In this document: positions 805-56,705 of the stretch, one piece after another
How positions within the stretch are numbered: position 1 is the first letter of the stretch
Layout of the letters: the number at the start of each line of letters is the position of its first letter
NCBI GenBank assembly: GCA_024685285.1
Contig: JAIKVZ010000033.1
Coordinates: 1 to 64,000 of the forward strand
Origin: Bacteroidales bacterium
GTDB taxonomy: Bacteria > Bacteroidota > Bacteroidia > Bacteroidales > P3
Reading direction: 5' to 3'
DNA length: 64,000 bases
Translations under genes and position numbers: made by a program
Notes under the pieces: model-generated
Database searches by the model: none
Told to the model about the DNA's origin: nothing
What the model saw: the letters and a program-made list of their open reading frames with translations, nothing else

Positions 805-846
805 GTTAGTCGGGTTGGGTTCGGGTTGAGGTCGGGTTAGGTTCGG
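805..846 (+). repeat. G-rich convergent-junction repeat, copy 1
   Basis: The sequence starts with GTTAGTCGGGTTGGGTTCGG, then GTTGAGGTCGGGTTAGGTTC and GG. It begins two bases after the stop of the Na/Pi gene and ends before the stop of the minus-strand symporter. It is the most divergent of six related copies, with the GGGTT-containing units in a different order, but it keeps four GGG tracts. Confidence 0.7.
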
Positions 847-895
847 ACAGCCCTTGCAAATCAACGCTTTATAGGCGGTCATTTCCCGACGAAAG

Positions 896-2371
896 TCAAT
901 GTTTGGCCCCTCTGTAGCCCGTTGCCATTGTCACCCCGGCGGCGGCCAAACCCCAGTACATCGGGTCGGCAGGCAGGTTCAACAGCCCCGCTATCAGCAT
1001 TGTGGCGGTGCCTAACACCATTGATAGGCGTACTGCCCGTGCGTTGAAACGTCCCGGCAGCCACAGCGCCGCGCTGAGCGGCAGCAGCAGCGCGGCGGCC
1101 CTAAGTCCCAGCGAAAGGAAACCCAAATCGTTCAAGAAGGCACCGCTTACAAAGTGTGCAGCCACAATGCCTGCAATCAGCAGTCCCACAATCGAGAGCC
1201 TCGTTGCCGTCAATGTGCTGCGATCGGTGCGTGGGCGGAGCACGTCGCGCGTCAGTATGGTGGCGGCCCCCAGCACCAATCCGCTGCCGCAGCCCAGAAT
1301 GTTGACCAGCAGCGTACCCAATGCCACACCGCCAAACCATGCCGGCAGATGGGCTGTGATGAATGTTGGGAAGGCCTGCAGCGAGTTGCCCAGAACCCCT
1401 GCGCCGGTAGGCAGCGGCACTCCGTCGGCCTGCAGGGCCGCAGCCTCGGCGGAGGTTATGTAGTGGCCGCGCATATAGAGTCCCACCAAGGTGCAGGCAG
1501 CTCCGATGAGAGGGATGAGCATGGCGCAGTATATGGCTCCGCGGCGTGCTTTGGCAGTGGTGGAGGCCGAGAGGACGGCCTGGGCGTAGGTTTGCGTACA
1601 CACTACGCCTAACGTCAGTGAGATGCAGCCGCCTATGTCTTTCAGAGGCCCTCGGGCTATGAGGTTCGAGTAGCGGCGGTGCACGCTCTCTGCTGTGTCA
1701 AGGCCGTTGAGGTCGGCTATATGCGGGTTGGTGTACATCTGTTCTATGCTTTGTTGCAGGCCTGCGAGCCCGTTGCCCAGTCGCCACACGGCTATGCCTG
1801 CCACCAACGAGCTGACATATAGCAGCACCAACTTGGCTATGCCGCTGGCGCCGGCACTCCTAATGCCGCCAACGAGCACCAAGGCCGCTATCAACGTTGC
1901 GCCTATGGCCAGCGCTGCTATGGTGGGTAGGCCGAAAAGGCTGGTTATCATGGCGGCCGATGAGAGCAGCTGCGAGGTTATACTTATAAATATTCCTGCC
2001 AGAAATAGCACGGAGCCCAACGTTTCGGCACGTGGGCCGTACTCGCGGCGCACCATCTCCATTATGGTGTTGCATCCGCTGCGGCGCAGTGGGCCGGCAT
2101 AGGCCAGACCCAGCAGCAAGGCCCCCAAGGCAGCTCCGATGGTAAACCACCATGCCGACAGACCGTAGCTGAATGCCAGCTGCGCTGTGCCTATGGTCGA
2201 CTGGCCGCCGACCAACGTGCCCAGTATGGCACCACACACCATCCAACTGCCGGCCTTGCCGCCGGTGGTGAAGCTGTGAGCGTCCCTCACGCGGCGGCCA
2301 GCTGCCACGCTCACCGCCACCAACAAGGCCACGGTGAGCAGAATGCCCGCGATATGTATAGTAGTCAGCAT
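896..2371 (-). CDS. Sodium:solute symporter (SSS family)
   Basis: The 491-residue protein is hydrophobic throughout, with roughly a dozen membrane helices, as expected for the SSS family (usual length 450-550). The N-terminal region contains SWMVCGAILGTLVGGQSTIG and FSYGLSAWWFTIGAALGALL, typical of the first helices around the sodium and substrate sites of the LeuT fold. It should take up an organic solute with sodium at the inner membrane; the substrate cannot be read from the sequence. It is a single-gene unit with its own perfect Bacteroidetes promoter upstream (2404-2434) and converges with the Na/Pi gene. Confidence 0.85.
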   Translation of the reverse strand: MLTTIHIAGILLTVALLVAVSVAAGRRVRDAHSFTTGGKAGSWMVCGAILGTLVGGQSTIGTAQLAFSYGLSAWWFTIGAALGALLLGLAYAGPLRRSGCNTIMEMVRREYGPRAETLGSVLFLAGIFISITSQLLSSAAMITSLFGLPTIAALAIGATLIAALVLVGGIRSAGASGIAKLVLLYVSSLVAGIAVWRLGNGLAGLQQSIEQMYTNPHIADLNGLDTAESVHRRYSNLIARGPLKDIGGCISLTLGVVCTQTYAQAVLSASTTAKARRGAIYCAMLIPLIGAACTLVGLYMRGHYITSAEAAALQADGVPLPTGAGVLGNSLQAFPTFITAHLPAWFGGVALGTLLVNILGCGSGLVLGAATILTRDVLRPRTDRSTLTATRLSIVGLLIAGIVAAHFVSGAFLNDLGFLSLGLRAAALLLPLSAALWLPGRFNARAVRLSMVLGTATMLIAGLLNLPADPMYWGLAAAGVTMATGYRGAKH

Positions 2372-2403
2372 GGTACGTCGGTTTTCAAAAAAACTTCCGT
2401 CTG

Positions 2404-2434
2404 CAAAGATACAAAATTTCTGCCGTCAGGCAAA
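2404..2434 (-). promoter_or_regulatory. Promoter of the SSS symporter
   Basis: On the minus strand TTTG (2434-2431) is followed by exactly 19 bases and TATCTTTG (2411-2404). This matches the Bacteroidetes primary-sigma consensus and lies about 35 bases upstream of the symporter ATG at 2371. Confidence 0.8.
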
Positions 2435-2458
2435 ATAAAAATTCATGTCCCGGTATTG

Positions 2459-2495
2459 CAAAAAACGAGAGGGGCCGCTTGTGTGCGACCCCTCT
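2459..2495 (-). terminator. Terminator of the ior operon
   Basis: The arms AGAGGGG (2468-2474) and CCCCTCT (2489-2495) form a GC-rich hairpin. On the minus strand it is followed by a run of six T. It lies just past the stop of the DUF4332 gene, so it ends the iorA-iorB-DUF4332 transcript. Confidence 0.75.
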
Positions 2496-2521
2496 GCATG
2501 TTTGGTATGGGCTATGGCTCA

Positions 2522-2929
2522 TTAGTATTTCACCATGGGCTCCATCTCCTTGGCCTGGGCAACCATTTTCTCTATCTCTTTGACAGAGGGTATGCGGTTG
2601 CAGAGGTTCTTTTCGGCGTTTACGGCCTCCATCTTGGCGCGGAGGTTGGCGGGCACGCGGTGGCGGAACTCTTTGATGGTGTCGACGCCGGCGGCTTCGA
2701 GCAGCTCTGAGAATTGCCCGGCCACGCCTTTAATGCGGAACAGGTCGGCATGGTTGGTCCAACGCAGGATGAGTTTCTCGCTTATGCCGGTGGCTTCGGC
2801 CGTTTTGCGGCGGCCGCTTTTGGTTGCGCAACGGGCAAGCAGGTCGTCGGTGGTTTTCACACCAGCCTCTTTGAGCTTGGCGGCGTAAGTGGCGCCAATG
2901 CCTTCAATGTCAATGATTTTGTGTGCCAT
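2522..2929 (-). CDS. DUF4332-like helix-hairpin-helix protein
   Basis: This 135-residue soluble protein begins with IDIEGIGATYAAKLKEAGV, a helix-hairpin-helix motif of the kind found in DUF4332 proteins. A second HhH-like segment (LFRIKGVAGQFSELLEAAGV) starts near residue 63. Such pairs usually bind DNA backbone or act as a protein-interaction module; the actual function is unknown. It is the last gene of a minus-strand operon, 33 bases after iorB, and a terminator follows. Its link to the oxidoreductase is positional only. Confidence 0.7.
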   Translation of the reverse strand: MAHKIIDIEGIGATYAAKLKEAGVKTTDDLLARCATKSGRRKTAEATGISEKLILRWTNHADLFRIKGVAGQFSELLEAAGVDTIKEFRHRVPANLRAKMEAVNAEKNLCNRIPSVKEIEKMVAQAKEMEPMVKY

Positions 2930-2962
2930 GATGATAATATTGTTTTGTTGTATAGGTTGGCG

Positions 2963-3526
2963 TTACTTGGCATCGCGGCCAGCGCGTATGGCCTTGATGT
3001 TTGTCTCTACCACGGTGTCGCCCTTGCGGCCAAAGATGGCCTTGATGGCTTTCTCCAACTCGTCGAAAGCAATCTCGAGGTAAGGGGCGGCGGCTCCGAG
3101 AAGTACCATGTTGCCGCGGGCGTTGAGCTCCTTGGCAATGGCGTTGGCGTTGAAGCTGACGCACTTCTTAAGCTTTGCCAACTCGGCGTTTACCTTCTCG
3201 ATGTCGGGATAGTTGGTAATATTGACAAACGGGTCGCTGTTGGTGATGACAACACCGTCGGGGGCCAGGAAGGTCAGGTAGCGCAGGGCTTCCATGGGTT
3301 CAGAGCTGAGTATAATGTCGGCCTTGCCTTCGGGTATAACGTCGGCAAATATGGGGTCGCTGCTGACACGCAGGTGGCTGAACACGCTACCACCGCGCTG
3401 ACTCATGCCGTGGATTTCGCTCTGCTTGACGTTGAGGCCGAGGTTGAGGGCGGCATCGCTGATGATTTTGGCCACGGAGACAATGCCGTCGCCGCCTACG
3501 CCGCAAAGTATGATGTCTTTTTTCAT
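2963..3526 (-). CDS. iorB: Indolepyruvate ferredoxin oxidoreductase, beta subunit
   Basis: The 187-residue protein matches the gamma-type domain of 2-oxoacid:ferredoxin oxidoreductases. It begins DIILCGVGGDGIVSVAKII, the glycine-rich motif of that domain, and continues with KQSEIHGMSQRGGSVFSHLR, a hallmark of IorB. With IorA it oxidatively decarboxylates aryl pyruvates (indolepyruvate, phenylpyruvate) to aryl acetyl-CoA and reduces ferredoxin. It lies 15 bases downstream of iorA, consistent with one transcript and stoichiometric synthesis. The length is normal for the family. Confidence 0.9.
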   Translation of the reverse strand: MKKDIILCGVGGDGIVSVAKIISDAALNLGLNVKQSEIHGMSQRGGSVFSHLRVSSDPIFADVIPEGKADIILSSEPMEALRYLTFLAPDGVVITNSDPFVNITNYPDIEKVNAELAKLKKCVSFNANAIAKELNARGNMVLLGAAAPYLEIAFDELEKAIKAIFGRKGDTVVETNIKAIRAGRDAK

Positions 3527-3541
3527 TGTTGTTTTCCTTTC

Positions 3542-5128
3542 TTATTTGTTAGCTGCAATACGTTTCTTGTTCTCGACAATGCAGACGCGCTGCGGTATGA
3601 TGACGCTCACGCCGTTGTAGGCAATCTCCTCTTCAAGGATCTTGACAAACTCGTCGTGGTTCTTCTTCAGCGGCACGATGGTGCGTATGTGGTCTGGATC
3701 GACACCGAGCCCCTTGCAGATATTGAAGAGCTTCTGGTTGGCGCTCGAGGGCTGGCCACCGGTCATGGCGGTGATGTCGTTGTCGAGTATCATAATTATT
3801 ACGTTGGCTTTCTCGTTCACGCAGTCGAGCAGGCCGGTCATGCCGCTGTGGCCGAAGGTACCGTCGCCTATGACGCCGATGGCAGGGAATATGCCCATTT
3901 CGGCGGCACCCTTGGCCATGGTAACGCTGGCACCCATGCACACGGTGGTATTGATGGCACCCATATTGAAACCGAGGGTGTAGCATCCGATGTCACCGAA
4001 TACGCGGCCGTTGGGATATTTCTTCATAACGTCGATAACGGCCTCATAGCTGTCGATATGAGGGCAGCCTACGCATAGAGCCGGTGGGCGGTTGGTAACC
4101 ACCTCGGGTACATCTGGACCTTTGGGCATGGGTTTGCCAAGAGCTATGGCCACCTTCTCGGCGTTGAGTTCGCCGTCGCGGCGTATGGTCTCGTCTATGC
4201 GGCCGTGCACGGGCTTGCCTTTGCCAAGGAAGCCTTTGATGTGCTCCTCTACAAACGGCTGGCCGTCTTCGAGCACCAATATCTCGCCAACCTCGTCATA
4301 GAGCTTGTTGAGCATATTGTAAGGCAGAGGGTACTGGGTTATTTTAACCACAGGGTAGGGGCATTTGCCGCCGGGGAAGTTCTCCTGCAGGTAGTTGAAA
4401 GCTATACCGGTGGTGATGATGCCGCGGCTCTTGTCAGTGCCCGGGATGTACTGGTTGTAGCCGCTCTCTTCAGAAGCTTTGGTGAATGCGGGCTGTTTGT
4501 CGATGAGGTCGCGGTAGAGACGCTTGGCGTTGACAGGCAGCAGCACGTAGCTCTTCGGGTCGCTGGGGCTCGAAAGTGGGTTCTGCTGGCGTACGGCTTT
4601 ACGCTCAACGCCGGCGCGGCTGTGGGCCAAGCGGGTGGGAATGCGCATGAGGATGGGGGTGCCCATCTGCTCGCTGAGCTCATAGCCATAGAAAACCATG
4701 TCGTATGCCTCCTGCTGGTTCGAGGGTTCGAGCATGGGTATCATGGCCCAGTGACCATAGTAGCGGCTGTCCTGCTCGTCCTGGCTGGAGAACATGCTGG
4801 GGTCGTCGGCCACTACGATGATAACACCCTTGGTGCCGATGATGGAGGCGTTCATGAAGGGGTCGCCGCAGACGTTGAGACCGACGTGCTTCATACAGGT
4901 CATGGCGCGTTTGCCGGCATAGGCCACGCCGATAGAGGCCTCGAGGGCGGTTTTCTCGTTGGCACACCAGTTGGCTACCACGCCCTGTTCCTTGGCCTGT
5001 TTGCTTTTCATCACATATTCGGTAATCTGGGTCGACGGGGTGCCGGGATAGCTGTTGATGGCGCTGCCGCCAGCATCAATAAATGCCTGTGCAATAGCCT
5101 CGTCGCCTAAAAGGAGAAGTTTTGACAT
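3542..5128 (-). CDS. iorA: Indolepyruvate ferredoxin oxidoreductase, alpha subunit (no ferredoxin tail)
   Basis: The 528-residue protein carries the pyrimidine-binding domain at the N-terminus (LLGDEAIAQAFIDAGGSAI, then SYPGTPSTQITEYV) and the thiamine diphosphate-binding domain after ALCVGCPHIDSYEAVIDVMK near residue 355 (GDIGCYTLGF, GDGTFGHSGMTGLLD). Classical IorA is about 600 residues and ends in a two-cluster ferredoxin domain with CxxCxxC motifs. Here the protein stops at RVCIVENKKRIAANK with no such motif, so electrons must leave by another route or a separate ferredoxin. It is the first gene of the ior operon, with a promoter at 5171-5199. Confidence 0.9.
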   Translation of the reverse strand: MSKLLLLGDEAIAQAFIDAGGSAINSYPGTPSTQITEYVMKSKQAKEQGVVANWCANEKTALEASIGVAYAGKRAMTCMKHVGLNVCGDPFMNASIIGTKGVIIVVADDPSMFSSQDEQDSRYYGHWAMIPMLEPSNQQEAYDMVFYGYELSEQMGTPILMRIPTRLAHSRAGVERKAVRQQNPLSSPSDPKSYVLLPVNAKRLYRDLIDKQPAFTKASEESGYNQYIPGTDKSRGIITTGIAFNYLQENFPGGKCPYPVVKITQYPLPYNMLNKLYDEVGEILVLEDGQPFVEEHIKGFLGKGKPVHGRIDETIRRDGELNAEKVAIALGKPMPKGPDVPEVVTNRPPALCVGCPHIDSYEAVIDVMKKYPNGRVFGDIGCYTLGFNMGAINTTVCMGASVTMAKGAAEMGIFPAIGVIGDGTFGHSGMTGLLDCVNEKANVIIMILDNDITAMTGGQPSSANQKLFNICKGLGVDPDHIRTIVPLKKNHDEFVKILEEEIAYNGVSVIIPQRVCIVENKKRIAANK

Positions 5129-5170
5129 AACGTATGTATTTTGTTAGATTTTAATTAATTTTAATTGGTG

Positions 5171-5199
5171 CAAAGATAATAAAAATTTCCGAATGTCAA
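5171..5199 (-). promoter_or_regulatory. Promoter of the ior operon
   Basis: On the minus strand TATCTTTG (5178-5171) forms the -7 element, with TTG (5199-5197) 18 bases upstream as a -33 element. The ATG of iorA is at 5128, giving a leader of about 35 bases. The surrounding 170 bases are very AT-rich. Confidence 0.65.
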
Positions 5200-5300
5200 T
5201 AAAATATTTATAAAACACTGGAAATCAATTAATATTTATTACATAAATTACAAAAAATGCAGACGACGGGACATCATATCACCGCGTTTTTGTATGGAAT

Positions 5301-12293: not shown

Positions 12294-12334
12294 ACCGTAG
12301 CCCATGCCTTAGGTATGGGCTACGGTATGTTTTT
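12294..12334 (+). terminator. Terminator of the S8 protease operon
   Basis: ACCGTAGCCCAT (12294-12305) and ATGGGCTACGGT (12315-12326) form a perfect 12-bp stem with a short loop, followed by ATG and a T run. Confidence 0.85.
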
Positions 12335-12390: not shown

Positions 12391-12436
12391 GGGTTAGGTT
12401 CGGGTTAAGGTCGGGTTGGGGTCGGGTAGCCTTCGG
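12391..12436 (+). repeat. G-rich convergent-junction repeat, copy 2
   Basis: The copy reads GGGTTAGGTTCGGGTTAAGG then TCGGGTTGGGGTCGGGTAG and a CCTTCGG tail. It lies between the 3' ends of the S8 protease (plus) and the aroG-aroQ fusion (minus). It is nearly identical to copy 5 at 50684. The rest of the 12266-12514 gap holds only the terminator. Confidence 0.85.
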
Positions 12437-18530: not shown

Positions 18531-23833
<5,303 letters not shown>

Positions 23834-23891
23834 CCCAACCCCATGCCGACCGCCGAAAACACTGTCAATATAACCATCATATATACAGGCT

Positions 23892-23932
23892 GTTAGATGG
23901 GTTAGGTTCGGGTTAAGGTCGGGTAGGGGTCG
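23892..23932 (+). repeat. G-rich convergent-junction repeat, copy 3
   Basis: GTTAGAT is followed by GGGTTAGGTTCGGGTTAAGG and TCGGGTAGGGGTCG. It lies between the end of cas2 and the end of the leftward CRISPR transcript, that is, at a convergent junction like the other five copies. Apart from this repeat and the terminator at 24058, nothing else was seen in the 313-base gap 23834-24146. Confidence 0.85.
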
Positions 23933-24057
23933 TTTAGAGTTCGGTTATTGCCTGTTTTTCAAGCATGTGTAAGCGGTTCTGAGCCGAACATACCCTCAAC
24001 AGACTACCCATTTCGGCCCCGTGGAATAGGTCGGCACAAATTAAAAACCGTAATAAA

Positions 24058-24097
24058 AACAAGAAAATCCTACTTTTTAAAGCAGGATTTTCTTGTT
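24058..24097 (-). terminator. Terminator of the CRISPR array transcript
   Basis: AACAAGAAAATCCT (24058-24071) and AGGATTTTCTTGTT (24084-24097) form a perfect 14-bp stem. On the minus strand it is followed by GTTTTTATTA. It sits 50 bases beyond the cas-proximal repeat, where a leftward array transcript should end; it may work in both directions. Confidence 0.75.
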
Positions 24098-24146
24098 CTA
24101 TAACATTAGATAAAAGACTGGTTCTCACCAAACTTACATAGATCGT

Positions 24147-26097
24147 ATTGTCAAATATCTATGTCAAAGTTCTCTTTTCAAGCAATTCACAACTTCGCGT
24201 CTGGCCTCATTATAATTGTTGGATTGTCAAATATCTATGTCAAAGTTCTCTTTTCAAGCAATTCACAACCACCTGGACACGCTCAGACAACCAGTGGCAA
24301 TTGTCAAATATCTATGTCAAAGTTCTCTTTTCAAGCAATTCACAACGCTAACAGTTGTACCTCCTCACGGGACCAAATTGTCAAATATCTATGTCAAAGT
24401 TCTCTTTTCAAGCAATTCACAACCGCCTGTCGGTACTGTTGTTTGACGGCACGATTGTCAAATATCTATGTCAAAGTTCTCTTTTCAAGCAATTCACAAC
24501 ACAGTCGAAGTTTGGCAGCTCATCGACGGCATTGTCAAATATCTATGTCAAAGTTCTCTTTTCAAGCAATTCACAACCACGAGGAGCAGCCACACATACT
24601 CTATCTATTGTCAAATATCTATGTCAAAGTTCTCTTTTCAAGCAATTCACAACCGTTCTCTTACATAGGCTTCGATATTAACATTGTCAAATATCTATGT
24701 CAAAGTTCTCTTTTCAAGCAATTCACAACCGGGTATCTCAATAGTAAACTCGTTGAACGATTGTCAAATATCTATGTCAAAGTTCTCTTTTCAAGCAATT
24801 CACAACCCTTCGGGTCAAAACAACTCCAATACAAGATTGTCAAATATCTATGTCAAAGTTCTCTTTTCAAGCAATTCACAACTGCTGCATAATCATTCAG
24901 TTACCGGCACACATTGTCAAATATCTATGTCAAAGTTCTCTTTTCAAGCAATTCACAACCAATGATACGCATAACAAACGAGGCAATAAATTGTCAAATA
25001 TCTATGTCAAAGTTCTCTTTTCAAGCAATTCACAACTTGTGACAGTTGTTCCGCTGCTGTGAGCCATTGTCAAATATCTATGTCAAAGTTCTCTTTTCAA
25101 GCAATTCACAACCGCGCTGTGTAATTTATACAGAAGTCAGAGATTGTCAAATATCTATGTCAAAGTTCTCTTTTCAAGCAATTCACAACAATTTGTGTCA
25201 TTTTCAAACACCCAATCAAATTGTCAAATATCTATGTCAAAGTTCTCTTTTCAAGCAATTCACAACCGTCGCGCCTGGCTTTGAGTTGCACCCAGAATTG
25301 TCAAATATCTATGTCAAAGTTCTCTTTTCAAGCAATTCACAACTACTAATGTTTTATCTTTAAGCATTGCTGCATTGTCAAATATCTATGTCAAAGTTCT
25401 CTTTTCAAGCAATTCACAACGTCTAATTTACGTCAAAACGCTGCAATGACATTGTCAAATATCTATGTCAAAGTTCTCTTTTCAAGCAATTCACAACCCT
25501 CACATTGACATATGCTCCAGATTGTAAATTGTCAAATATCTATGTCAAAGTTCTCTTTTCAAGCAATTCACAACCATGTCAATAAAGATAATATAAAAAA
25601 GTCTATTGTCAAATATCTATGTCAAAGTTCTCTTTTCAAGCAATTCACAACTGGTAGTGTATTATTGTCTATTGTTATACTATTGTCAAATATCTATGTC
25701 AAAGTTCTCTTTTCAAGCAATTCACAACACTTCGGACGCGACTATGTGGAGAAGTTAAATTGTCAAATATCTATGTCAAAGTTCTCTTTTCAAGCAATTC
25801 ACAACAAGAAAGTGATTAATGTTTCCAATTGTATATTGTCAAATATCTATGTCAAAGTTCTCTTTTCAAGCAATTCACAACCGGGCGAGGGAACTTTTTG
25901 CATTAATGTTGATTGTCAAATATCTATGTCAAAGTTCTCTTTTCAAGCAATTCACAACCAGGGGTTGTGATTTCTGTATTGTGGGGAAATTGTCAAATAT
26001 CTATGTCAAAGTTCTCTTTTCAAGCAATTCACAACTTTCATGGGTGCACGATGTTGTATAACTATATTGTCAAATATCTATGTCAAAGTTCTCTTTT
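24147..26097 (-). CRISPR. Type II-C CRISPR array, 26 repeats and 25 spacers
   Basis: The 47-bp repeat, read on the minus strand (sense of the crRNA), starts with GTTGTGAATTGCTTGAAAAG, continues AGAACTTTGACATAGATATT and ends TGACAAT. Twenty-five copies appear identical; the 26th (26066-26097) keeps only 32 bp and lacks the GTTGTGAATTGCTTG end. The spacers are 30 nt (19 of them) or 29 nt (6). The minus strand is called the sense strand because the tracrRNA anti-repeat, a strong promoter at 26108-26138 and a terminator at 24058-24097 all agree. The truncated repeat is then the first one transcribed; since no spacer precedes it, losing its tracrRNA-pairing half costs nothing. Spacer targets cannot be read without a search. 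Confidence 0.98.
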
Positions 26098-26107
26098 TTT
26101 CACGCTG

Positions 26108-26138
26108 CAAAGGTACAAATCTTTTTTCATTTGGCAAA
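26108..26138 (-). promoter_or_regulatory. Promoter of the CRISPR array
   Basis: On the minus strand TTTG (26138-26135), 19 bases, then TACCTTTG (26115-26108). Transcription would begin about five bases before the truncated repeat and run leftward through all spacers. Confidence 0.85.
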
Positions 26139-28525: not shown

Positions 28526-28564
28526 GCGAAAAGGTACACAACACCCAAACCTCATCGTCCGACT

Positions 28565-28603
28565 GACGTGCCTTTACATGGCTTCCTGACGTAAAGGTAC
28601 GTC
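28565..28603. repeat. 13-bp inverted repeat after the HU operon
   Basis: GACGTGCCTTTAC (28565-28577) pairs with GTAAAGGTACGTC (28591-28603), with one G-T pair. It probably ends the HU transcript. This convergent gap (28526-28768) lacks the G-rich junction repeat. Confidence 0.6.
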
Positions 28604-28676
28604 GCGGCTGATGTATAATTGTGCTGTAAAAAAACCGCCGACACACCGCCGAGGGGTCACCGAGAGGTCGTGGGGT

Positions 28677-28722
28677 AAAAAAAAACTTGCGCAGGTGCAA
28701 TTTGAAAATTGACCTGCGCAAG
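28677..28722 (-). terminator. Terminator of the phosphate butyryltransferase gene
   Basis: CTTGCGCAGGT (28686-28696) and ACCTGCGCAAG (28712-28722) form a perfect 11-bp stem that is extended by CAATT/AATTG. On the minus strand nine T follow. Confidence 0.9.
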
Positions 28723-28768
28723 CAGTTTATCGGATTAGTCTAAATAATTCCCCGCCGCGGGGACGCGG

Positions 28769-33321: not shown

Positions 33322-33341
33322 ACATTAGTGAGTCTAATAAA

Positions 33342-33372
33342 AAGGGCGACGAAAACCAATTCCGTCGCCCTT
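33342..33372. terminator. Bidirectional terminator between the C10 protease and FMN-binding genes
   Basis: AAGGGCGACG (33342-33351) and CGTCGCCCTT (33363-33372) form a perfect 10-bp stem flanked by A- and T-rich runs. It serves both converging genes; no G-rich junction repeat is present here. Confidence 0.85.
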
Positions 33373-33392
33373 CTTTATTGATGCCGATTTGG

Positions 33393-36202: not shown

Positions 36203-36247
36203 GACCCGACCTCAACCCGACCTTAACCCGAACCTAAACTATCTAAC
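36203..36247 (-). repeat. G-rich convergent-junction repeat, copy 4
   Basis: On the minus strand: GTTAGATAGTTTAGGTTCGG, then GTTAAGGTCGGGTTGAGGTC and GGGTC. It lies between the ends of recJ and the ABC permease. The sequence after it (AACATCGG) is shared with copy 6. Confidence 0.85.
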
Positions 36248-36255: not shown

Positions 36256-36294
36256 ACCCAGCGAGTTAAGTATTTAATACTTAACTCGCTGGGT
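36256..36294. terminator. Near-perfect 39-base palindrome between recJ and the ABC operon
   Basis: ACCCAGCGAGTTAAGTATT (36256-36274) is repeated in reverse complement at 36276-36294 with one base between, so the stem can be up to 18 bp after loop formation. There is no T run on either strand, so it may stop RNA decay or polymerase differently from a classic terminator. Confidence 0.65.
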
Positions 36295-43493: not shown

Positions 43494-44372
43494 ATGGCAA
43501 AGCAAACATTCATACAGTTTTTACAGAAATATCCTGTTGTGAAGCACCTACTTTTAATGCTGGGGGTATCTTTGGCAATATTGGTTGTGGTTTTTGTGCT
43601 CATCAAGATTTATGCACGCCAAGGCCAGGAGTATGAGCTGCACGACATTGTGGGCATGAATTACGAGTCTGTGCGCGACAATAACGAACTCTCGTTGCGT
43701 TATGTCGTCATGGATTCGATATACAAGCCAGGAGTCGAGGGCGGTCTTATATTGACCCAGGATCCCAAACCGGGCACCATGATAAAGAAAGGCCGTAAGA
43801 TATACATTACCATGACAGCATACTCGGCCGAGGATGCTGTCATGCCTGAGCTTTCCGGTAGTACTGTGCGCCAGGCGGTGTCACACCTCGAGAGTGCCGG
43901 CCTGCAAGTGGGCTCACTAAAGTTCGTCGACGACCCATATAAGAATGCAATCCTTGGACAGTCAGTAGGAGGCAAGAATGTGTATGCAGGCCAACAGATA
44001 CCACGAGGTTCTATGGTAGATCTCACTGTGGGTCTTGGCGATGGCAAGGGCGAGTCGGTGGTGCCGTTTGTTATAGGCAAGACCTCGTCACGCGCCAGAC
44101 GCGACATACTGGTATTGTCGCTCAATGTGGGCAGAGAACACTACAAAGGGGTAAAAGACAAACAGAACGCAGTGGTCTACCGTCAGGATCCTGACTACAC
44201 GGGCATCTCCAAATATCCTTTTGGAACCTCGGTGGAACTCTGGTATTGCGATGCTACCAATGAAGAGATTGACCGTATGGTTAAAGAGTTTAAAGTCGAT
44301 TCCTCAAAAATAATACTCCCGGCCGAGACCGAAGAAGGTTTCTTCTCTGATGATGACGGCTACCAATGGTAA
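43494..44372 (+). CDS. PASTA domain protein
   Basis: The 292-residue protein has one N-terminal membrane helix (LLLMLGVSLAILVVVFVLIK) and three extracytoplasmic PASTA-like units. The clearest is MPELSGSTVRQAVSHLESAG followed by LQVGSLKF, with others around QDPKPGTMIKKGRKIYITMT and VPFVIGKTSSRARRDILVLS. PASTA units bind peptidoglycan fragments or cell-wall precursors in other bacteria; this protein has no kinase domain. It follows miaB by 22 bases and precedes a T9SS cargo gene by 5 bases, so it is probably co-transcribed with them. Confidence 0.87.
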   Translation: MAKQTFIQFLQKYPVVKHLLLMLGVSLAILVVVFVLIKIYARQGQEYELHDIVGMNYESVRDNNELSLRYVVMDSIYKPGVEGGLILTQDPKPGTMIKKGRKIYITMTAYSAEDAVMPELSGSTVRQAVSHLESAGLQVGSLKFVDDPYKNAILGQSVGGKNVYAGQQIPRGSMVDLTVGLGDGKGESVVPFVIGKTSSRARRDILVLSLNVGREHYKGVKDKQNAVVYRQDPDYTGISKYPFGTSVELWYCDATNEEIDRMVKEFKVDSSKIILPAETEEGFFSDDDGYQW

Positions 44373-44377
44373 TCCCC

Positions 44378-46264
44378 ATGCGTCGCGTTTTCTCCATAGC
44401 CATACTGCTCATTGCCGCCCATATTGTTATGGGACAGGAAGTCCTTGTGCCTCTTGAGTGCCCACCTGTTTCGGCTCCTAAACGTGCAATAAAGCAGGCT
44501 GTCGGAGCTGTCAAACTGCCGTTTTTCGACGATTTCTCAAACTACCAAGGCTATCCTGACCCATCGTTGTGGGTGGGCGATCAGGCCTTTGTGGGACGTG
44601 GCTACGGCTCCAAACCGCCAACATTGGGAATGCTCACTCTCGATGCCATCGATGGACAGGGCAACCTTCATGTCGATGCGAGCACCGATATTTTTGGAGG
44701 CGACACCGCCCTCAGTGTGGCTATTAGGCTCGACTCGGTGTGGGATGCCAGTCCTCACCCAGCAACTGCTGCCGATTCGATAGTATTCAGCTTTTTCTAC
44801 CTGCCGGGCGGAGGCTCTGGCGAACAGTGGGAACGTACAACAGGACGCCCGTCCGAAGAGGACTCATTGTTTCTCGAGTTTTATCAACCCCGGATAGGAA
44901 TGTGGAAAACAGTATGGAGCCGAGGTGGAATTCCAGCAGATAGCGTCGGGTTAGGTTCGGGTCAAGTATGGAGATATGTCGCCCTAAGCATTACCGATAC
45001 AGCCTATCTGGATAGCGCTTTCCGATTCCGTTTCCGCAACCATTGCTCCCTGCCCAATAGTACTAAGCCTGGTAGGGTGGGCAACTGCGACCACTGGAAT
45101 ATTGACTACGTATTCCTCGACTGGGGTCGCAGCGTGAGAAACAGCACTTTCGACGATGTTGCGTTTGTTGACGACGCACCCTCAATGCTGGCCCACTATC
45201 GTGCAATGCCAGCACGCCAGTATACTCCGGCCGATATGGCTGCGAATTTGCAGATGACCATCACCAACCTCTACTCGTCACCGATAGCCACGCACTACGG
45301 CTACACTGTCTACGACCAAACCGGAACCGAGGTGCACAGCTACGACGGAGGCAATAACAATGCACCCTCCTTTCAGCAAACAGGCTCCTACCAACAATGG
45401 GCGCCACACGCTACGCCGCCTGTTGATTTCAGTTATACCGTTGGTGCCGAACCCCACACATATACCGTTGTTCATGTGGTGAGTGAGGGCACTGGCGACA
45501 CACATCCGCAGAACGACACAGTTTCATTCACGCAGGTGTTCGACAACTACTATGCCTATGACGACGGTACTCCCGAAAACGGTTACGGCCTATCTTCTGT
45601 GGGTAAGTTGGCATATCGTTTTGACCTCAATATAGAAGATACCTTGACTGCCGTCGACCTCTACTTCAACCGCACTCGTAATGGTGAGAACGAGCGTGTG
45701 CCTTTCTACATATCGGTGTGGAACTGCGTGGGTGGCAAGCCGTCACAATTGCTATATCGCGATACAAGACGCCGCTATCCACAGTTTTCGGGTCTCAACA
45801 AGTATGAGCGCTATGTGCTTGAGACCGAGGTTGTGGTGTCAGACACCATATTTGTGGGACTTGAACAGCTCAATGCTAACTTCCTCAATATAGGATTCGA
45901 CCGTAGTTTAAATACAAGCAGTCGCATATTCTGCCGCTATGGCACCGAATGGGAGGGCAGCATTAATGCGGGCTCTATTATGCTAAGACCATACTTTGGC
46001 CGGAAGGCTACAATGAAGGTCCCGCAGGCCAATGCTGCGCAATACAGCGTTTATCCTTTGCCTGCAACCAGCGTGTTGCACGTGACAGGTCCTGTGCAGG
46101 GATGCATGGTAACATTGGCAGATATGTATGGGCGCGTGTGTTTTGCGGCCAAAGGTGCGGATGATATTGATGTAAGTGCTTTTCCAATAGGGATTTATGT
46201 ACTATATATCGCCGACAGCCAAAAACATACCCTCTACACAACAAAAATCGTGATTTCGCGTTAA
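44378..46264 (+). CDS. Secreted protein with T9SS-type C-terminal sorting domain
   Basis: The start was set at 44378 (MRRVFSIAILLIAAHIVMGQ, a signal peptide); an ATG at 44366 would overlap the previous gene. The 628-residue protein contains beta-sandwich domains (LPFFDDFSNYQGYPDPSLWV at the start, a jelly-roll typical of Bacteroidetes surface proteins) and ends in a Por-type domain (YSVYPLPATSVLHVTG, MYGRVCFAAKGADD, IGIYVLYIADSQKH). No catalytic motif is visible. A stretch at 44945-44966 encoding VGLGSGQ matches part of the G-rich junction repeat. It is probably a secreted or surface-attached protein of unknown role. Confidence 0.8.
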   Translation: MRRVFSIAILLIAAHIVMGQEVLVPLECPPVSAPKRAIKQAVGAVKLPFFDDFSNYQGYPDPSLWVGDQAFVGRGYGSKPPTLGMLTLDAIDGQGNLHVDASTDIFGGDTALSVAIRLDSVWDASPHPATAADSIVFSFFYLPGGGSGEQWERTTGRPSEEDSLFLEFYQPRIGMWKTVWSRGGIPADSVGLGSGQVWRYVALSITDTAYLDSAFRFRFRNHCSLPNSTKPGRVGNCDHWNIDYVFLDWGRSVRNSTFDDVAFVDDAPSMLAHYRAMPARQYTPADMAANLQMTITNLYSSPIATHYGYTVYDQTGTEVHSYDGGNNNAPSFQQTGSYQQWAPHATPPVDFSYTVGAEPHTYTVVHVVSEGTGDTHPQNDTVSFTQVFDNYYAYDDGTPENGYGLSSVGKLAYRFDLNIEDTLTAVDLYFNRTRNGENERVPFYISVWNCVGGKPSQLLYRDTRRRYPQFSGLNKYERYVLETEVVVSDTIFVGLEQLNANFLNIGFDRSLNTSSRIFCRYGTEWEGSINAGSIMLRPYFGRKATMKVPQANAAQYSVYPLPATSVLHVTGPVQGCMVTLADMYGRVCFAAKGADDIDVSAFPIGIYVLYIADSQKHTLYTTKIVISR

Positions 46265-50520: not shown

Positions 50521-50525
50521 CACTC

Positions 50526-50618: not shown

Positions 50619-50683
50619 CAATGTGCTCATTTTCAGGAAGTTGACATTATCGGTATAATTACCTGAAATTCAATGCGTTGAAT

Positions 50684-50720
50684 GGGTTAGGTTCGGGTTA
50701 AGGTCGGGTTGGGGTCGGGT
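50684..50720 (+). repeat. G-rich convergent-junction repeat, copy 5
   Basis: GGGTTAGGTTCGGGTTAAGG then TCGGGTTGGGGTCGGGT, followed by AGGCCTCGG. It lies between fabD with its small RNA (plus) and the MBL gene (minus). The 36-base core is identical to copy 2, 38 kb away. Confidence 0.85.
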
Positions 50721-52308: not shown

Positions 52309-52398
52309 AAGGCTTTAACGTGGGCGCAACGTGGCCGTGTGAAACTTTTTTGCCATTTTTGCGTATACAATATCTGTTACATTGCGAACAACCAACTG

Positions 52399-54822
52399 AT
52401 GAAAAAAAAACCAGAACAGGACGAGATAGCAACCGCCGGCATAACAGGCCGCGCCGAATTTATACCGCTTATTTCAAAAGACGAAGAGGATTTCCTGCTG
52501 CGTGAGCAAGATGTGCCCGACCGTTTGCCGGTGCTCACCATAAGAGACAACGTGCTTTTCCCGGGTGTCATCATGCCCATAGCGGCCAACAGGCCCAAGT
52601 CGGTCAAGCTGCTTAAAGAGGCTGGCCGCAAGAGCCTGCGCATAGGTGTACTGGCCCAACTGGGCGACGATGACGACCCCTCGCTTGACCAAGTGTACCA
52701 TGTGGGCGTGGTGGCGCGGGTGCTCAAGGTGTTCGACCTGCCCGACGGCACTACCATGGCCGTGGTCCAGGGCTCGGAAAGGTTCGGTTTGACCCAGCTT
52801 TACATCTCATCGCCTTACAACTACGCCGATATAGTGCTCCTGCCCGAATTGCCAAACAAGCGCAAACGTGCCTTTCGCACCAACATGACCGTGCTGCGCA
52901 ACCAGTACACGGCGTTGCTGCAAGCCCGCAACCAGGGCGGACCTGTCGACAGTATTAAAGATATTGGCAGCGACAAGATTCTTATCAACTTCATTGCCAC
53001 CCATCTCGACATCAGCACCGAAGACAAGCAAAACCTGCTCTGCACCGACACCTACGAGGAACGCTTGGAGATGTTGTTGGTCCAGTTGGAGAAGGAATTG
53101 CAATACACCAAGGTGCGCGACGACATCCTCGACAAAACCCGCAACGAGATGGACCGCCAGCAGCGTGAATACTACCTCAACCAGCAGATGAGGGTTATCC
53201 AGGACGAACTTGGCGGTTCGCCCACCGACCACGATGTTGAGGAGCTGCAAGCCCGTGCCGCCAAGAAGCATTGGAACAAGAAAGTCTCGTCGGCTTTTGA
53301 CCATGAACTCGACAAGTTGAAGCGTATGCAGCTTCAGTCGCCCGACTATTCAACACAGATATCTTATCTTGACTTCATGCTCGATCTGCCGTGGGACGAT
53401 GTGAGCCGCGATGACCTGCGCGTTGACCACGCCCGCCGTGTGCTCGACCGCGACCACTATGGCATCGAGAAAGTCAAAGATCGCATTATAGAACACTTGG
53501 CCGTGCTTTCGCTCAAAGGCGATCTCAAAGCCCCGATTCTGTGCTTGGTTGGCCCCCCGGGTACTGGAAAGACCTCGTTAGGCAAGAGCATTGCCGCCGC
53601 CATGAACCGCAAGTATGTGCGTATGGCGCTTGGAGGTATGCACGACGAGTCGGAGATACGCGGCCATCGCCGTACATACATAGGTGCTATGCCGGGTCGT
53701 GTCTTGCAGAACATCAAGAAGGCCGGCACCTCGAACCCCGTGTTTGTGCTTGACGAGATAGACAAGGTGCAAGGGCAGACCGTGAACGGAGACCCAACCT
53801 CGGCTTTGCTCGAAGTGCTTGATCCTGAGCAGAACGTGGCCTTCCATGACAACTATTTGGATGTTGACTACGACCTCTCGCACGTCATGTTCATAGCCAC
53901 CGCCAACACGCTCTCCACCATACAGCCCGCTTTGCTCGATCGTATGGAGGTGATAGACCTTTCGGGCTACATCTTGGAGGAGAAGATCGAGATAGCTTCG
54001 CGCCACTTGGTGCCTCGTGCCATGAAGGAGCACGGCTTCACGCCGTCGGCCCTTAAGTTCTCGAAAGAGATTTTGACACTCATAATCAACGACTATACAC
54101 GCGAGTCGGGCGTGCGTGGGCTTGACAAGGCATTGACCAAGATAATCCGCCGGCGTGCGGTGCGTGTGGCCTCGGGCGAGACTTTCGGCCGTGGCGCTGC
54201 CCGCAATATTACCGCCGACGAGGTCCGCGAGGCCCTCGGCCTGCCTATACACAACAGCGAGCGCCGTGCTCAAGAGCCGTCCGTGGGTGTCGTCACAGGC
54301 TTGGCATGGACTCAAGTCGGTGGCGAGATTCTCTTCATCGAGGCCTCTACCTCGCATGGCAAGGGCACCTTGAGCATGACTGGAAATTTGGGCGACGTGA
54401 TGAAAGAGTCGGCCACTTTGGCATTCGAGTACCTCAAAGCCAACGCTGAGAAGTTCGGGATAGCCACCGACCTCATCGAGAACAGCAACATACACATCCA
54501 CGTGCCCGAGGGTGCCACACCCAAGGATGGCCCGTCGGCCGGCATAACCATGTTCGTGGCTATGGTGTCGGCTTTCACCGGCCGAAAAGTACGCCCCGAG
54601 ACCGCCATGACTGGTGAAATAACGTTGCGTGGCGCCGTGACACCCGTGGGTGGCATAAAAGAGAAGATTTTGGCCGCAAAGAGGGCCGGAATTACCAACA
54701 TAATATTATCTGAAGACAACCGTCGCGACATCGAGGACATCAAGGCCGAGTATCTGGCAGGCCTCGAGTTTCACTACATTACCAATATGTCGCAGGCTCT
54801 GTCACTGGCCCTGTTGCCTTAA
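52399..54822 (+). CDS. lon: ATP-dependent protease Lon (LonA)
   Basis: The start at 52399 ([20 protein letters not shown]) gives 807 residues. The N-domain ([20 protein letters not shown]) binds substrate. The AAA+ module has Walker [16 protein letters not shown], Walker [12 protein letters not shown] and arginine fingers. The protease domain has the Ser-Lys dyad Ser713 in [10 protein letters not shown] and Lys756 in [14 protein letters not shown]. It degrades damaged and regulatory proteins in the cytoplasm. A sigma-54-like site lies upstream. The next gene begins 13 bases later. Confidence 0.97.
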
Positions 54823-54835
54823 AAGCCCCCGAACC

Positions 54836-56302
54836 ATGCACAGTTTGTTCAGAAAGACCATAGTTGCCGCAGCTGCAGTGTTTGCCACTGCTGCCGCTTT
54901 TGCGCAGACCTCGGCCTTGGTTGCACACGAGGAGCCGCTGGCGGCTCTGCCCACAGCCGTTCAGCGTATCTACCAGCTCGACGGCCGTCTGCTCTGCCGC
55001 GTGGAAGGTTTGACCATGGTGGCTGATGTTGTCAATGGGCACATTGCCACCTTGCACCCCGACACCGTCCTTGCCGCCATTGACCGCAATGCAGAGTACG
55101 CCCAGCGCCATCCGGCCACGGGCGACCTTTATGTGACAGTACCCAACCGCAAAGGCACACCACGCCTCTACCTGTGGACTGCCAACGAGCGCCGCCCCAA
55201 GCTGCGAGAGGTGGTGCTGCCAGGTTTTGAGGACAAGGCAGTAGCCATTGTGGGCCATGTGTTCACTGCTGACGGCAGCCTGATGATATTCGCATCAAAC
55301 AGTCGCAGGGGCAGCGGCGGCTACGACCTGTGGTACAGCGAGTACCGCCAAGGCGCGTGGCAGCGACCGCACAATCTTGGCGGTCGCATCAACACCCCGG
55401 GCGACGAGCTCGACCCAACGCTATACGGCCCGTATCTTGTTTTTGCCTCGACAGGCCACCGCAAAGAGGCAGCCCCCCTCAACCTGTATGTCACCCGCCT
55501 CATTGCCGACCATATAGAGGGCGACACTGTGGGTATGCTCCAGATAGGACGCAGCCGTGTGCAGCACCTGCCCGAGCCAATCAATGCCGCAGGCGAGAGC
55601 CGCAGCATGATGGCCGACTCGGCGGCGGCTTTCTGCTTATGGGCGGCCGACGGCCGTATATGCTCGCTTCAGGGACCGCTGCAAAGCACCAGCCTTTGGG
55701 GACGCGTGAGTGACAAACTGGGCAACCCCGTGGACAAAGCCACAGTATGCGCGCAAAAGGACGGCAGGATCCTCTGCCGCACCACAACAAATATGTTTGG
55801 CTACTATCAGTTGCAACTGCCTTGCAGCGGCAACTATACCATAGTGTGCACCAAACCCAACCGTTATGCCACTTCGGAGCAGGTCACGACTTCGGTTGCC
55901 GACAACGGGAACCTATTGGCCGACCTCCAGCTCGATATTGTGCAGGACAGCCTGCCGCTGGGTCAGAAACTGACCTATACCGACCTCTTTGACTACGATG
56001 CCTCGCCCGAGCTCTCGCCCGCCGGCAAGGCCGCGTTGCAGCCGCTTATCGCCTACCTGCGCGACAACCCCCACATAGGCGCAACACTGAGCCTGGCCGA
56101 GGGGTTGACTGGCAGCGCCGAATTCAACGCGCTGCTGGCGCAAAACCGTGTGCAGAGCCTGCGGCAATACCTGCGCGAGCAGTTACCCGAAGGAACCAAA
56201 TTGGTGTTCAAAACACCCCGCAGAGCTCCGATGCCGCCCAACTATGGAGGTCCGTGGACTCAGTTGAGCGTGCTGCTGCAACCTGCCAACCGTATGGATT
56301 GA
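54836..56302 (+). CDS. Envelope protein with PD40-like propeller, CRD and OmpA-like domains (PorE-like)
   Basis: The 488-residue protein has a signal peptide (ending ATAAAFAQ). Beta-propeller PD40-like blades follow (FTADGSLMIFASNSRRGSGG then YDLWYSEYRQGAWQRPHNLG, and LDPTLYGPYLVFASTGHR), then a CarboxypepD_reg-like unit (SLWGRVSDKLGNPVDKATV, MFGYYQLQLPCSGNYTIV), and a C-terminal OmpA-like part (FDYDASPELSPAGKAALQPL, LLAQNRVQSLRQYLREQLPE). This order matches the T9SS anchoring protein PorE, but the N-terminal TPR of PorE is missing. The function is therefore an inference. It lies 13 bases after lon. Confidence 0.72.
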   Translation: MHSLFRKTIVAAAAVFATAAAFAQTSALVAHEEPLAALPTAVQRIYQLDGRLLCRVEGLTMVADVVNGHIATLHPDTVLAAIDRNAEYAQRHPATGDLYVTVPNRKGTPRLYLWTANERRPKLREVVLPGFEDKAVAIVGHVFTADGSLMIFASNSRRGSGGYDLWYSEYRQGAWQRPHNLGGRINTPGDELDPTLYGPYLVFASTGHRKEAAPLNLYVTRLIADHIEGDTVGMLQIGRSRVQHLPEPINAAGESRSMMADSAAAFCLWAADGRICSLQGPLQSTSLWGRVSDKLGNPVDKATVCAQKDGRILCRTTTNMFGYYQLQLPCSGNYTIVCTKPNRYATSEQVTTSVADNGNLLADLQLDIVQDSLPLGQKLTYTDLFDYDASPELSPAGKAALQPLIAYLRDNPHIGATLSLAEGLTGSAEFNALLAQNRVQSLRQYLREQLPEGTKLVFKTPRRAPMPPNYGGPWTQLSVLLQPANRMD

Positions 56303-56389
56303 GCCGCAGCAAGACGTTGATAATTAATATTTTGAGTACTATTAAGGTGCTCTGTAAGTCTGTGGCTGCCAAAAAATAGCAAAAAAAAT

Positions 56390-56420
56390 TTTGCCATATC
56401 AGAAAAAGTTAGTACTTTTG
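56390..56420 (+). promoter_or_regulatory. Promoter of tRNA-Pro
   Basis: TTTG (56390-56393), 19 bases, then TACTTTTG (56413-56420), about 35 bases before the tRNA. Confidence 0.8.
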
Positions 56421-56455
56421 CACCCGATTTCGAAAGAACGAAATCGTCATTCGCT

Positions 56456-56529
56456 CGGGGTGTGGCGCAGTTGGCTAGCGCACTTGCATGGGGTGCAAGG
56501 GGTCGAAAGTTCGAGTCTTTTCACCCCGA
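56456..56529 (+). tRNA. tRNA-Pro (anticodon GGG)
   Basis: A 74-base cloverleaf is complete: acceptor CGGGGTG/CACCCCG, D stem GCGC/GCGC, anticodon stem CTTGC/GCAAG around loop ATGGGGT (anticodon GGG at 56490-56492), T arm GAAAG-TTCGAGT-CTTTT, discriminator A at 56529. CCA is not encoded. It reads CCC and CCU proline codons. Confidence 0.96.
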
Positions 56530-56538
56530 CGAAAGAAG

Positions 56539-56577
56539 GAAGAGAGAACACAGTGGTGTTCTCTCTTCGTTTGTTTT
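56539..56577 (+). terminator. Terminator of the tRNA gene
   Basis: GAAGAGAGAACAC (56539-56551) and GTGTTCTCTCTTC (56556-56568) form a perfect 13-bp stem with a four-base loop, followed by GTTTGTTTT. Confidence 0.92.
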
Positions 56578-56660
56578 ACGGGTATAAATAGCTGACAGTC
56601 AGTGTGAAGATGGACTATGTTCGGCTTTTGTTCGCAGGGTGGGCGTGGGTGGCCGATGTT

Positions 56661-56705
56661 GACCCGACCACAACCCGACCTTAACCCGAACCTAACCTAT
56701 CTAAC
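56661..56705 (-). repeat. G-rich convergent-junction repeat, copy 6
   Basis: On the minus strand: GTTAGATAGGTTAGGTTCGG, then GTTAAGGTCGGGTTGTGGTC and GGGTC, followed by AACATCGG as in copy 4. It lies between the tRNA (plus) and the OmpA-family gene (minus). Confidence 0.85.

What the first reader, a model, noticed from the sequence alone, without database searches (positions are those of the whole stretch)
805..56705. A G-rich intergenic repeat family placed only at convergent transcript ends
Six copies (805-846, 12391-12436, 23892-23932, 36203-36247, 50684-50720, 56661-56705) share a core of GGGTTAGGTTCGGGTTAAGG followed by TCGGGTTGNGGTCGGGT. Four point right, two left. Each lies between the 3' ends of two converging units; of eight such junctions in the window six carry a copy, and no complete copy was found at a divergent or co-directional gap. 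Each copy has about four G-runs of three or more, so a quadruplex is possible. The family could act in termination, RNA stability, replication-transcription conflict or nucleoid organisation.
Basis: seen in the sequence. Interest (0 to 1): 0.8.

Follow-up and report, generated by a model that had tools for sequence, protein, structure and literature searches.

The report
Phased repeats at converging gene ends
A rumen-type bacterium carries one copy of a short, evenly spaced DNA repeat in most places where two neighbouring genes run towards each other, and a related species does the same, less completely, with its own version of the repeat, which points to a job, still unproven, at the ends of converging genes.

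Summary
The repeat is real and not confined to the window. The draft genome G000 (2.0 Mb, Bacteroidales, same genus as "bacterium P3") has 242 core matches. In 864 kb, 57 of 80 convergent gaps carry a copy, against 21 of 498 co-directional and 1 of 82 divergent gaps; no convergent gap holds two, where chance placement gives about 11. Tolerance behind terminators does not readily explain this: among 100-800 bp gaps with a strong terminator call, 35 of 41 convergent and 11 of 55 co-directional ones carry a copy.

The unit is TCGG repeated at 11 bp with variable fillers, behind a degenerate palindrome. A related species (G016) has 139 matches of its own dialect, absent from G000, at 36 of 85 convergent, 12 of 568 co-directional and 1 of 87 divergent gaps, never two per gap. 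At the orthologous cas2 end the two species hold arrays in opposite orientations; four relatives lack one.

Best reading (0.4): a DNA docking element kept at convergent 3' ends, working like a BIME. Main rival (0.3): a selfish repeat surviving only there. Quadruplex unsupported (1 of 78 copies). No RAYT found in G000 or G016.

The parts
805..846 (+). copy 1, array only (no upstream palindrome seen), between a PhoU-domain gene end (802) and a symporter gene end (896)
12391..12436 (+). copy 2, array; between a subtilase gene end (12265) and a DAHP synthase/chorismate mutase gene end (12515)
12294..12326 (.). hairpin between gene end 12265 and copy 2
   Evidence: sequence, coordinates; terminator call
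23892..23932 (+). copy 3, array; downstream of cas2 (stop 23833); related species G016 has its own array here in the opposite orientation
24059..24096 (.). hairpin downstream of cas2; four relatives without the array have a similar hairpin 30 to 200 bp after the cas2 stop
36203..36247 (-). copy 4, array; between recJ-like gene end (36125) and ABC-2 transporter gene end (36317)
36256..36294 (-). 18-bp-stem hairpin upstream of copy 4 (in its orientation)
50684..50720 (+). copy 5, array; between acyltransferase gene end (50448) and beta-CASP metallohydrolase gene end (50773)
50656..50680 (+). degenerate palindrome upstream of copy 5 (family consensus TAAC-N3-CTG-N5-CAG-N3-GTTA)
   Evidence: consensus; sequence
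56661..56705 (-). copy 6, array; between tRNA-Pro (56456-56530) / gene 54836-56302 and gene end 56786
56733..56769 (-). 13-bp-stem hairpin upstream of copy 6 (in its orientation)
44948..44967 (+). near-copy (2 mismatches in 20) inside coding gene 44366-46264
28526..28768 (.). convergent junction without a copy; strong hairpin calls in both directions
33322..33392 (.). convergent junction without a copy; compact hairpin called in both directions

Best explanation
A species-specific extragenic element: a degenerate palindrome or hairpin followed by (usually) three to four half-sites (TCGG) in 11-bp helical phase, present as one copy per convergent gene junction. The most likely mechanism is a DNA-level docking array for a protein that acts where two transcripts run at each other. 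That protein could be gyrase, which removes the positive supercoils trapped there, or a nucleoid or insulator protein. The element spreads by copying, and selection keeps one where it is needed and removes it from promoters and genes. Shown: placement, one per junction, 11-bp phase with freer fillers, dialects in two species, and arrays of opposite orientation at two orthologous ends. Inferred: separate gain at those ends, protein binding, the protein's identity, and the topological or insulating role.
For: Placement 57/80 convergent, 21/498 co-directional, 1/82 divergent; 52/58 convergent gaps of at least 100 bp, against 21/137 and 1/72. Never two per convergent gap, against about 11 expected, minimum 6 in 2000 simulations; also never two in G016. 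Terminator-matched control, gaps of 100-800 bp: 35/41 against 11/55, p 1e-10. Where a further TCGG was found it lay 11 bp on in 72/72 and 46/46 copies at the two steps outside the searched core; 6 and 26 copies had none. Third half-site 1.6-1.9 bits, fourth 0.6-1.3, fillers 0.1-1.0. Related species: 139 matches of its own dialect; 36/85 convergent, 12/568 co-directional, 1/87 divergent; the same 11-bp lag. Opposite orientations at the cas2 end and at C29:124411/G118.
Against: No protein partner was found, and none was sought. Copies exist in co-directional gaps (21) and in genes (about 10), so it is not an absolute rule. In G016 the 11-bp lag also shows in 19 of 224 co-directional and 6 of 78 divergent gaps of at least 50 bp. 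Some convergent gaps work with a hairpin alone, and 116 of 120 genus genomes show no match at the stringency (111 of 120 at that), so any role is dispensable. One per gap could also come from target immunity. One orthologous junction (C21:82266) has the same orientation and related flanks in both species, that is, plain inheritance. 11-bp tandem repeats of other sequence occur in some relatives without convergent placement. At the fourth spacing step the counts are 2 at 11, 1 at 7 and 43 none.
Confidence: 0.4

Rival explanations
1. A selfish mobile repeat (MITE- or REP-like) that inserts near gene ends or terminators and survives only between converging genes, because elsewhere it damages promoters, operons or proteins. 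Target immunity, or lack of room, limits it to one per gap. No host function.
For: Element present in G000 and absent in G016 at two orthologous co-directional gaps (C26:21653, 373 bp against 96 bp; C29:107149). Opposite orientations at two orthologous ends. G016 copies have imperfect inverted ends TAAC..CTGA / TCAG..GTTA. A few copies share longer near-identical stretches (about -286 to +70) that include related gene ends. Gaps with a copy are longer, as insertion would make them.
Against: Co-directional gaps of 100-800 bp with strong terminators are mostly empty (11 of 55 carry a copy) while convergent ones are mostly full (35 of 41). 11-bp phase with freer fillers looks like constraint, not even decay. 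No Y1 (RAYT) transposase found in G000 or G016. No target-site duplications were established.
Confidence: 0.3
2. An RNA-level 3'-end element: the C-rich strand, with ACCCGA every 11 nt, is a Rho loading site, or the array plus hairpin is a composite terminator or RNA-stability element for one of the two transcripts.
For: C-rich, regularly spaced strand; 29 of 78 copies have a hairpin with a stem of 9 bp or more upstream, all with different arms, against 31 of 390 shuffled. Of 50 convergent gaps of 100-800 bp with a copy, 15 have no strong terminator call on either strand, while all 6 such gaps without a copy have one.
Against: Orientation relative to the upstream transcript is not fixed in co-directional gaps: C-rich in 13 of 21 (G000) and 5 of 12 (G016). 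At cas2 a hairpin is retained beside the array and the two species have opposite orientations.
Confidence: 0.15
3. A DNA uptake signal with species dialects, spread by transformation and molecular drive into the least constrained sites.
For: Species dialects. Matches inside genes exceed synonymous shuffles: 9 sense and 2 antisense against means of 0 and 0.3. Neisseriaceae DUS have dialects and sit in terminators (PMC3630211, passages seen).
Against: Hundreds, not thousands, of copies (the paper's abstract passage says thousands). Much longer than a DUS, and concentration at convergent gaps is not a DUS trait that I know of (both recalled). Competence genes and receptors were not searched.
Confidence: 0.08
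4. Chance local expansion of 11-bp minisatellites, a habit of this genus, without dispersal or function.
For: Other species of the genus have unrelated 11-bp (and 7-9 bp) tandem repeats in gaps.
Against: In G000 and G016 the same array recurs at more than a hundred scattered sites, and the copies read share a 5' palindrome (80 copies, 49); local expansion cannot give that.
Confidence: 0.04

Closest known systems
REP / BIME elements (repetitive extragenic palindromes)
   Same: Hundreds of short extragenic copies, few at divergent gaps; a palindrome plus other motifs; BIME-2 has the properties of a strong gyrase site in E. coli, and the gyrase motif has phased 10-bp G/C variation (PMC3733652 and PMC6379681, passages seen).
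   Different: REPs lie between co-directional as well as convergent genes and often in dimers or clusters; here 57 of 80 convergent gaps carry exactly one and co-directional gaps few. No GTAG/CGTC foot in the consensus; no RAYT found in the two carrier genomes; the conserved part is an 11-bp direct array.
BrickBuilt MITE of Porphyromonas gingivalis
   Same: Bacteroidales (recalled); a tandem array (23-nt bricks) with leader, tail and small inverted ends; always intergenic; keyword 'species-specific repeat' (PMC4596501, abstract and outline seen).
   Different: 19 copies in one strain, not over 200; 23-nt units; convergent placement not stated in the abstract; bidirectional promoter activity is reported for BrickBuilt.
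DNA uptake sequences (DUS/USS)
   Same: Species dialects, many scattered copies, in terminators and tolerated in genes (PMC3630211, passages).
   Different: About 10-12 nt (length recalled) and thousands of copies; no phased array; not restricted to convergent gaps (recalled).
OmpR/PhoB-type direct-repeat operators (PhoP box)
   Same: Half-sites at 11-bp head-to-tail spacing; for M. tuberculosis PhoP, 7-bp motifs with a 4-bp spacer (start of abstract of PMC4832192 in the listing; the Bacillus PhoP box is recalled).
   Different: Those lie at promoters in far fewer copies (recalled); these lie at gene ends in hundreds. No regulator was tested.

Membership tests
REP/BIME | short palindrome with GTAG or CGTC foot | tested here: not met
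   By consensus only, not copy by copy: 80 G000 copies and 49 G016 copies show TAAC-N3-CTG-N5-CAG-type palindromes without such a foot
REP/BIME | RAYT (Y1_Tnp, PF01797) gene in the genome | tested here: not met
   0 in G000 (90% complete) and 0 in G016 (listed 100% complete); present in G118, G051 and G002
REP/BIME | extragenic, at 3' ends, few at divergent gaps | tested here: met
   57/80 convergent, 21/498 co-directional, 1/82 divergent; about 10 in genes
REP/BIME | binds gyrase or IHF | not testable with these tools
   needs binding data
MITE | terminal inverted repeats | tested here: inconclusive
   G016 copies have imperfect TAAC..CTGA / TCAG..GTTA ends; in G000 only the left end is at a fixed place
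MITE | target-site duplication and a cognate transposase | not tested
   One long/short gap pair seen but not analysed for a duplication; transposases other than Y1 not searched
DUS/USS | species dialects of one motif | tested here: met
   G000 core, and a G016 26-mer with 139 matches in G016 and 0 in G000
DUS/USS | thousands of copies | tested here: not met
   242 core matches in G000, 139 in G016
DUS/USS | uptake receptor and uptake bias | not tested
   no competence-gene search was made
G-quadruplex element | four G3+ runs with loops of 1-7 nt | tested here: not met
   1 of 78 G000 copies, 8 of 49 G016 copies
Rho utilisation site | C-rich strand in the transcript to be ended | tested here: inconclusive
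   C-rich in the upstream transcript in 13 of 21 (G000) and 5 of 12 (G016) co-directional copies; at convergent gaps one transcript always reads it

The most novel reading that the evidence does not exclude
Some bacteria mark each convergent gene boundary that has room with one helically phased protein-docking array, a dedicated convergent-junction insulator. The recognition sequence changes between related species together with its binding protein, and the same junctions are filled again independently in each species.
Probability: 0.25. Interest if true: 0.9.

Novelty: new variant of a known kind. Interest (0 to 1): 0.7.

Why it matters
How bacteria deal with two polymerases driving positive supercoils and antisense transcripts into one short gap is an open question. 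Here is a genome in which about 90% of convergent gaps of at least 100 bp (52 of 58; the element itself adds to that length) carry exactly one copy of a defined element, and a related genome with a different dialect at the same kind of place. That gives a natural two-species test of sequence, phase and protein partner. Even if the element proves selfish, one copy per convergent gap is an unusually sharp case of site limitation for an intragenomic parasite.

Tried and rejected
Quadruplex: 1 of 78 copies fit the canonical pattern. RAYT-driven REP: no PF01797 match in G000 or G016. Phage-borne repeat: 0 exact matches of one 17-mer in IMG/VR (one exact pattern only). Rho site with fixed orientation: not fixed. 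Orientation with replication: by local GC skew 39 concordant against 24 discordant of 63, not convincing. Transposase beside the longest duplicates: the neighbouring genes share a C-terminal domain that I read by eye as T9SS-type sorting, not a transposase (no Pfam run on them). Literature: sought such repeats (one search returned no paper; no title in the listing other than BrickBuilt looked related); some searches sought analogues. Only open-licence PMC papers are held. Opened: PMC4596501 (outline and abstract), PMC3733652, PMC6379681 and PMC3630211 (passages).

Weak points: the genes are from my own codon-usage caller, so starts and some small genes are uncertain and some 'co-directional' cases may be misassigned. 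G000 is a draft, 90% complete with 6% contamination. Copies were merged within 60 bp or 25 bp on one strand; 2 copies at stretch edges were dropped; 2 register duplicates were dropped but not. The 242 and 139 count matches, not merged copies. The simulation takes 110 bp off each gap that has a copy. G118 and G051 stretches were picked around known hits, so their gap counts say nothing about placement.
Full report
WHAT IS IN THE WINDOW. The core GGGTTAGGTTCGGGTTAAGG (up to 3 mismatches) matches 8 places on the two strands; 100 shuffled windows gave none. These are the six reported copies, one second register 11 bp away, and one near-copy inside gene 44366-46264. My gene calls give eight convergent junctions, six with a copy. 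The junction at 23.9 kb is the end of a cas9-cas1-cas2 operon facing a CRISPR array.

WHAT THE UNIT IS. Reading the copies side by side shows an array with an 11-bp unit: TCGGGT followed by five variable bases. Of 78 copies, all have a second TCGG 11 bp on (partly set by the searched core), 72 a third and 46 a fourth, each at 11 bp; 6 and 26 copies end before. At one step more, 2 continue at 11, 1 at 7 and 43 not at all (11 was taken when present). The third half-site carries 1.6-1.9 bits, the fourth 0.6-1.3 and the fillers 0.1-1.0. Upstream lies a degenerate palindrome TAAC-N3-CTG-N5-CAG-N3-GTTA. In 29 of 78 copies there is a hairpin with a stem of 9 bp or more, all 29 arms different, against 31 of 390 shuffled.

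PLACEMENT IN THE GENOME. G000 has 242 core matches and none to the reversed control. Copies: 34 of 46 and 23 of 34 convergent gaps; 9 of 267 and 12 of 231 co-directional; 1 of 43 and 0 of 39 divergent; 6 and 4 in genes; 0 and 2 at edges. Pooled: 57 of 80, 21 of 498 and 1 of 82 (Fisher p about 4e-42 for convergent against co-directional). Among gaps of at least 100 bp: 52 of 58, 21 of 137 and 1 of 72.

ONE PER JUNCTION. No convergent gap has two copies. Poisson expects 12.8 such gaps; a length-weighted placement gave 11.3 on average and never fewer than 6 in 2000 runs. Of the 23 convergent gaps without a copy, 17 are shorter than 90 bp, and several of those hold a strong two-way hairpin. Of the six longer ones, three share another sequence that includes TCTAACCCGACTTCTGACCCG, which read on the other strand has two array-like units 11 bp apart, and one looks coding by eye. 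Because an insertion lengthens a gap, length alone proves nothing. The count of one per gap and the next control carry the argument.

CONTROL FOR TOLERANCE. If the repeat merely survives behind terminators, co-directional gaps with a terminator should carry it too. Among gaps of 100-800 bp with a strong terminator call, 35 of 41 convergent and 11 of 55 co-directional ones have a copy (p 1e-10). Convergent gaps were scanned on both strands and co-directional ones on one; shuffled gaps were called in 12 of 56 and 5 of 129. A residual promoter effect in co-directional gaps is not excluded.

RELATIVES. A word search in 120 genus genomes finds the G000-like array in four (154, 40, 16 and 1 matches). 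A looser phased pattern finds matches in 9 of 120, G051 with different fillers. At family level exact matches occur in 7 of 190. De novo k-mer counting in G016 found its own dialect: the 12-mer CGACCTCAATAC in 20 of 35 convergent, 5 of 134 co-directional and 2 of 30 divergent gaps of at least 25 bp. A 26-nt form of it has 139 matches in G016 and none in G000 or 57 other genus genomes. In 920 kb of G016 it sits in 36 of 85 convergent, 12 of 568 co-directional and 1 of 87 divergent gaps, never two per gap. In unbiased lag tests, 11 is the sharp period at convergent gaps of G000 (24 of 40) and G016 (18 of 33); with more sequence, 43 of 71 and 30 of 67, but in G016 also 19 of 224 co-directional and 6 of 78 divergent gaps. 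G002 also shows 11-bp arrays (4 of 13 convergent, 5 of 96 co-directional, 1 of 18 divergent), of another sequence and often as inverted pairs. Nine further species, 398 kb in all, show scattered 11-bp repeats of other sequence and none at their 28 convergent gaps of at least 50 bp; G093 shows none at 9. So convergent placement is shown for two species only. G016 is the closest relative tested (median identity of reciprocal best hits 75%; G118 69%; G002 63%).

ORTHOLOGOUS JUNCTIONS. Of 152 adjacent orthologous gene pairs between G000 and G016, 4 are convergent in G000: arrays in both at C21:82266, same orientation and related flanks; an array in G000 only at C1:50758, where G016 is co-directional; an array in G016 only at C31:12233, where G016 has 2.8 kb between the genes; none in either at C7:1716. 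Of 140 co-directional pairs, 2 have an array in G000 only (C26:21653, 373 bp against 96 bp; C29:107149), 1 in G016 only, 137 in neither; 8 divergent pairs have none. Against G118, C29:124411 has arrays in both, in opposite orientations, and C29:116946 none in either. At the cas2 end G000 has the G-rich strand in the cas2 sense and G016 the reverse, each in its dialect. G067, G097, a horse-gut relative and P3 have no array there, only a hairpin 30, 30, 101 and 200 bp after the stop. The sample is small. It shows inheritance at one junction and, most simply read, separate gain at two.

IN GENES. At up to 3 mismatches, 9 sense and 2 antisense matches lie in genes, against means of 0 and 0.3 in 10 synonymous shuffles. 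Examples are folC, the ftsZ linker and sorting-domain proteins (names read by eye, not from a family search). The motif is therefore tolerated at rare places in genes.

MECHANISM. Helical phase, freer fillers, indifference to orientation, one per convergent gap and a dialect in each species fit a DNA docking array better than an RNA element. Convergent gaps collect positive supercoils (recalled). In E. coli, the gyrase motif has phased 10-bp G/C variation, gyrase is enriched downstream of transcribed units, and it cuts BIME-2 (PMC6379681, passages; there the BIME-2 signal rises, not falls, when transcription is blocked). The mean G/C profile here autocorrelates at lag 11 (0.68 in G000, 0.51 in G016), in part because the copies are aligned on a searched core. 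Gyrase is thus a concrete candidate, but nothing here shows binding. I give docking with a selected role 0.4 and a purely selfish repeat 0.3.

KNOWN KINDS. REPs lie mainly between co-directional and convergent genes and carry GTAG or CGTC feet (PMC3733652, passages); their link to RAYTs is recalled and appears in abstracts listed. Here foot and RAYT are not met. BrickBuilt (PMC4596501, abstract) is the nearest element by build that I found. I file this as a new variant of the extragenic-repeat kind: it works like a BIME, if it works, but is not a REP.

Noticed in passing
window 18531-26113: Type II CRISPR-Cas locus: Cas9-like protein of 1352 aa (RuvC_III, HNH), Cas1, Cas2 and an array of 26 repeats at 76-77 bp spacing; near full-length relatives of the Cas9 (56% identity or more) in 12 of 120 genus genomes, own included.
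   Followed up: partly
G016 C22:34637-34777 (L148): A run of 11-bp units (GGTCGGGTTRA) over more than 140 bp, filling a 168-bp gap between two co-directional genes: tandem expansion of the same unit.
   Followed up: no
G002 C1 (L150-L162): 11-bp arrays as inverted pairs around ACCATGGT, and abundant 7-bp tandem repeats in gaps and even coding tiles (30 of 773 tiles).
   Followed up: partly
G051 contig ends (C65, C37, C71, C84, C101, C163, C184): Phased TCGGG arrays with other fillers lie within about 75 bases of a contig start, or (C65, C37) of a known contig end, suggesting a high-copy family that broke the assembly.
   Followed up: no
G000 C12:76311-76698, C14:17104-17592, C34:757-1377: A second, longer repeat shared by three convergent gaps (TATTCGGA... 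and TCTAACCCGACTTCTGACCCG), possibly a divergent relative of the array.
   Followed up: partly
G016 folC (R5:77823-79199) and G000 folC (C21:42871-44205): The coding gene, orthologous by eye, carries array-like sequence in frame at the same place in both species, longer in G016.
   Followed up: partly
G163 C11:339522-339569: A tandem TCGGGTACTTG 11-mer in another genus of the family.
   Followed up: no
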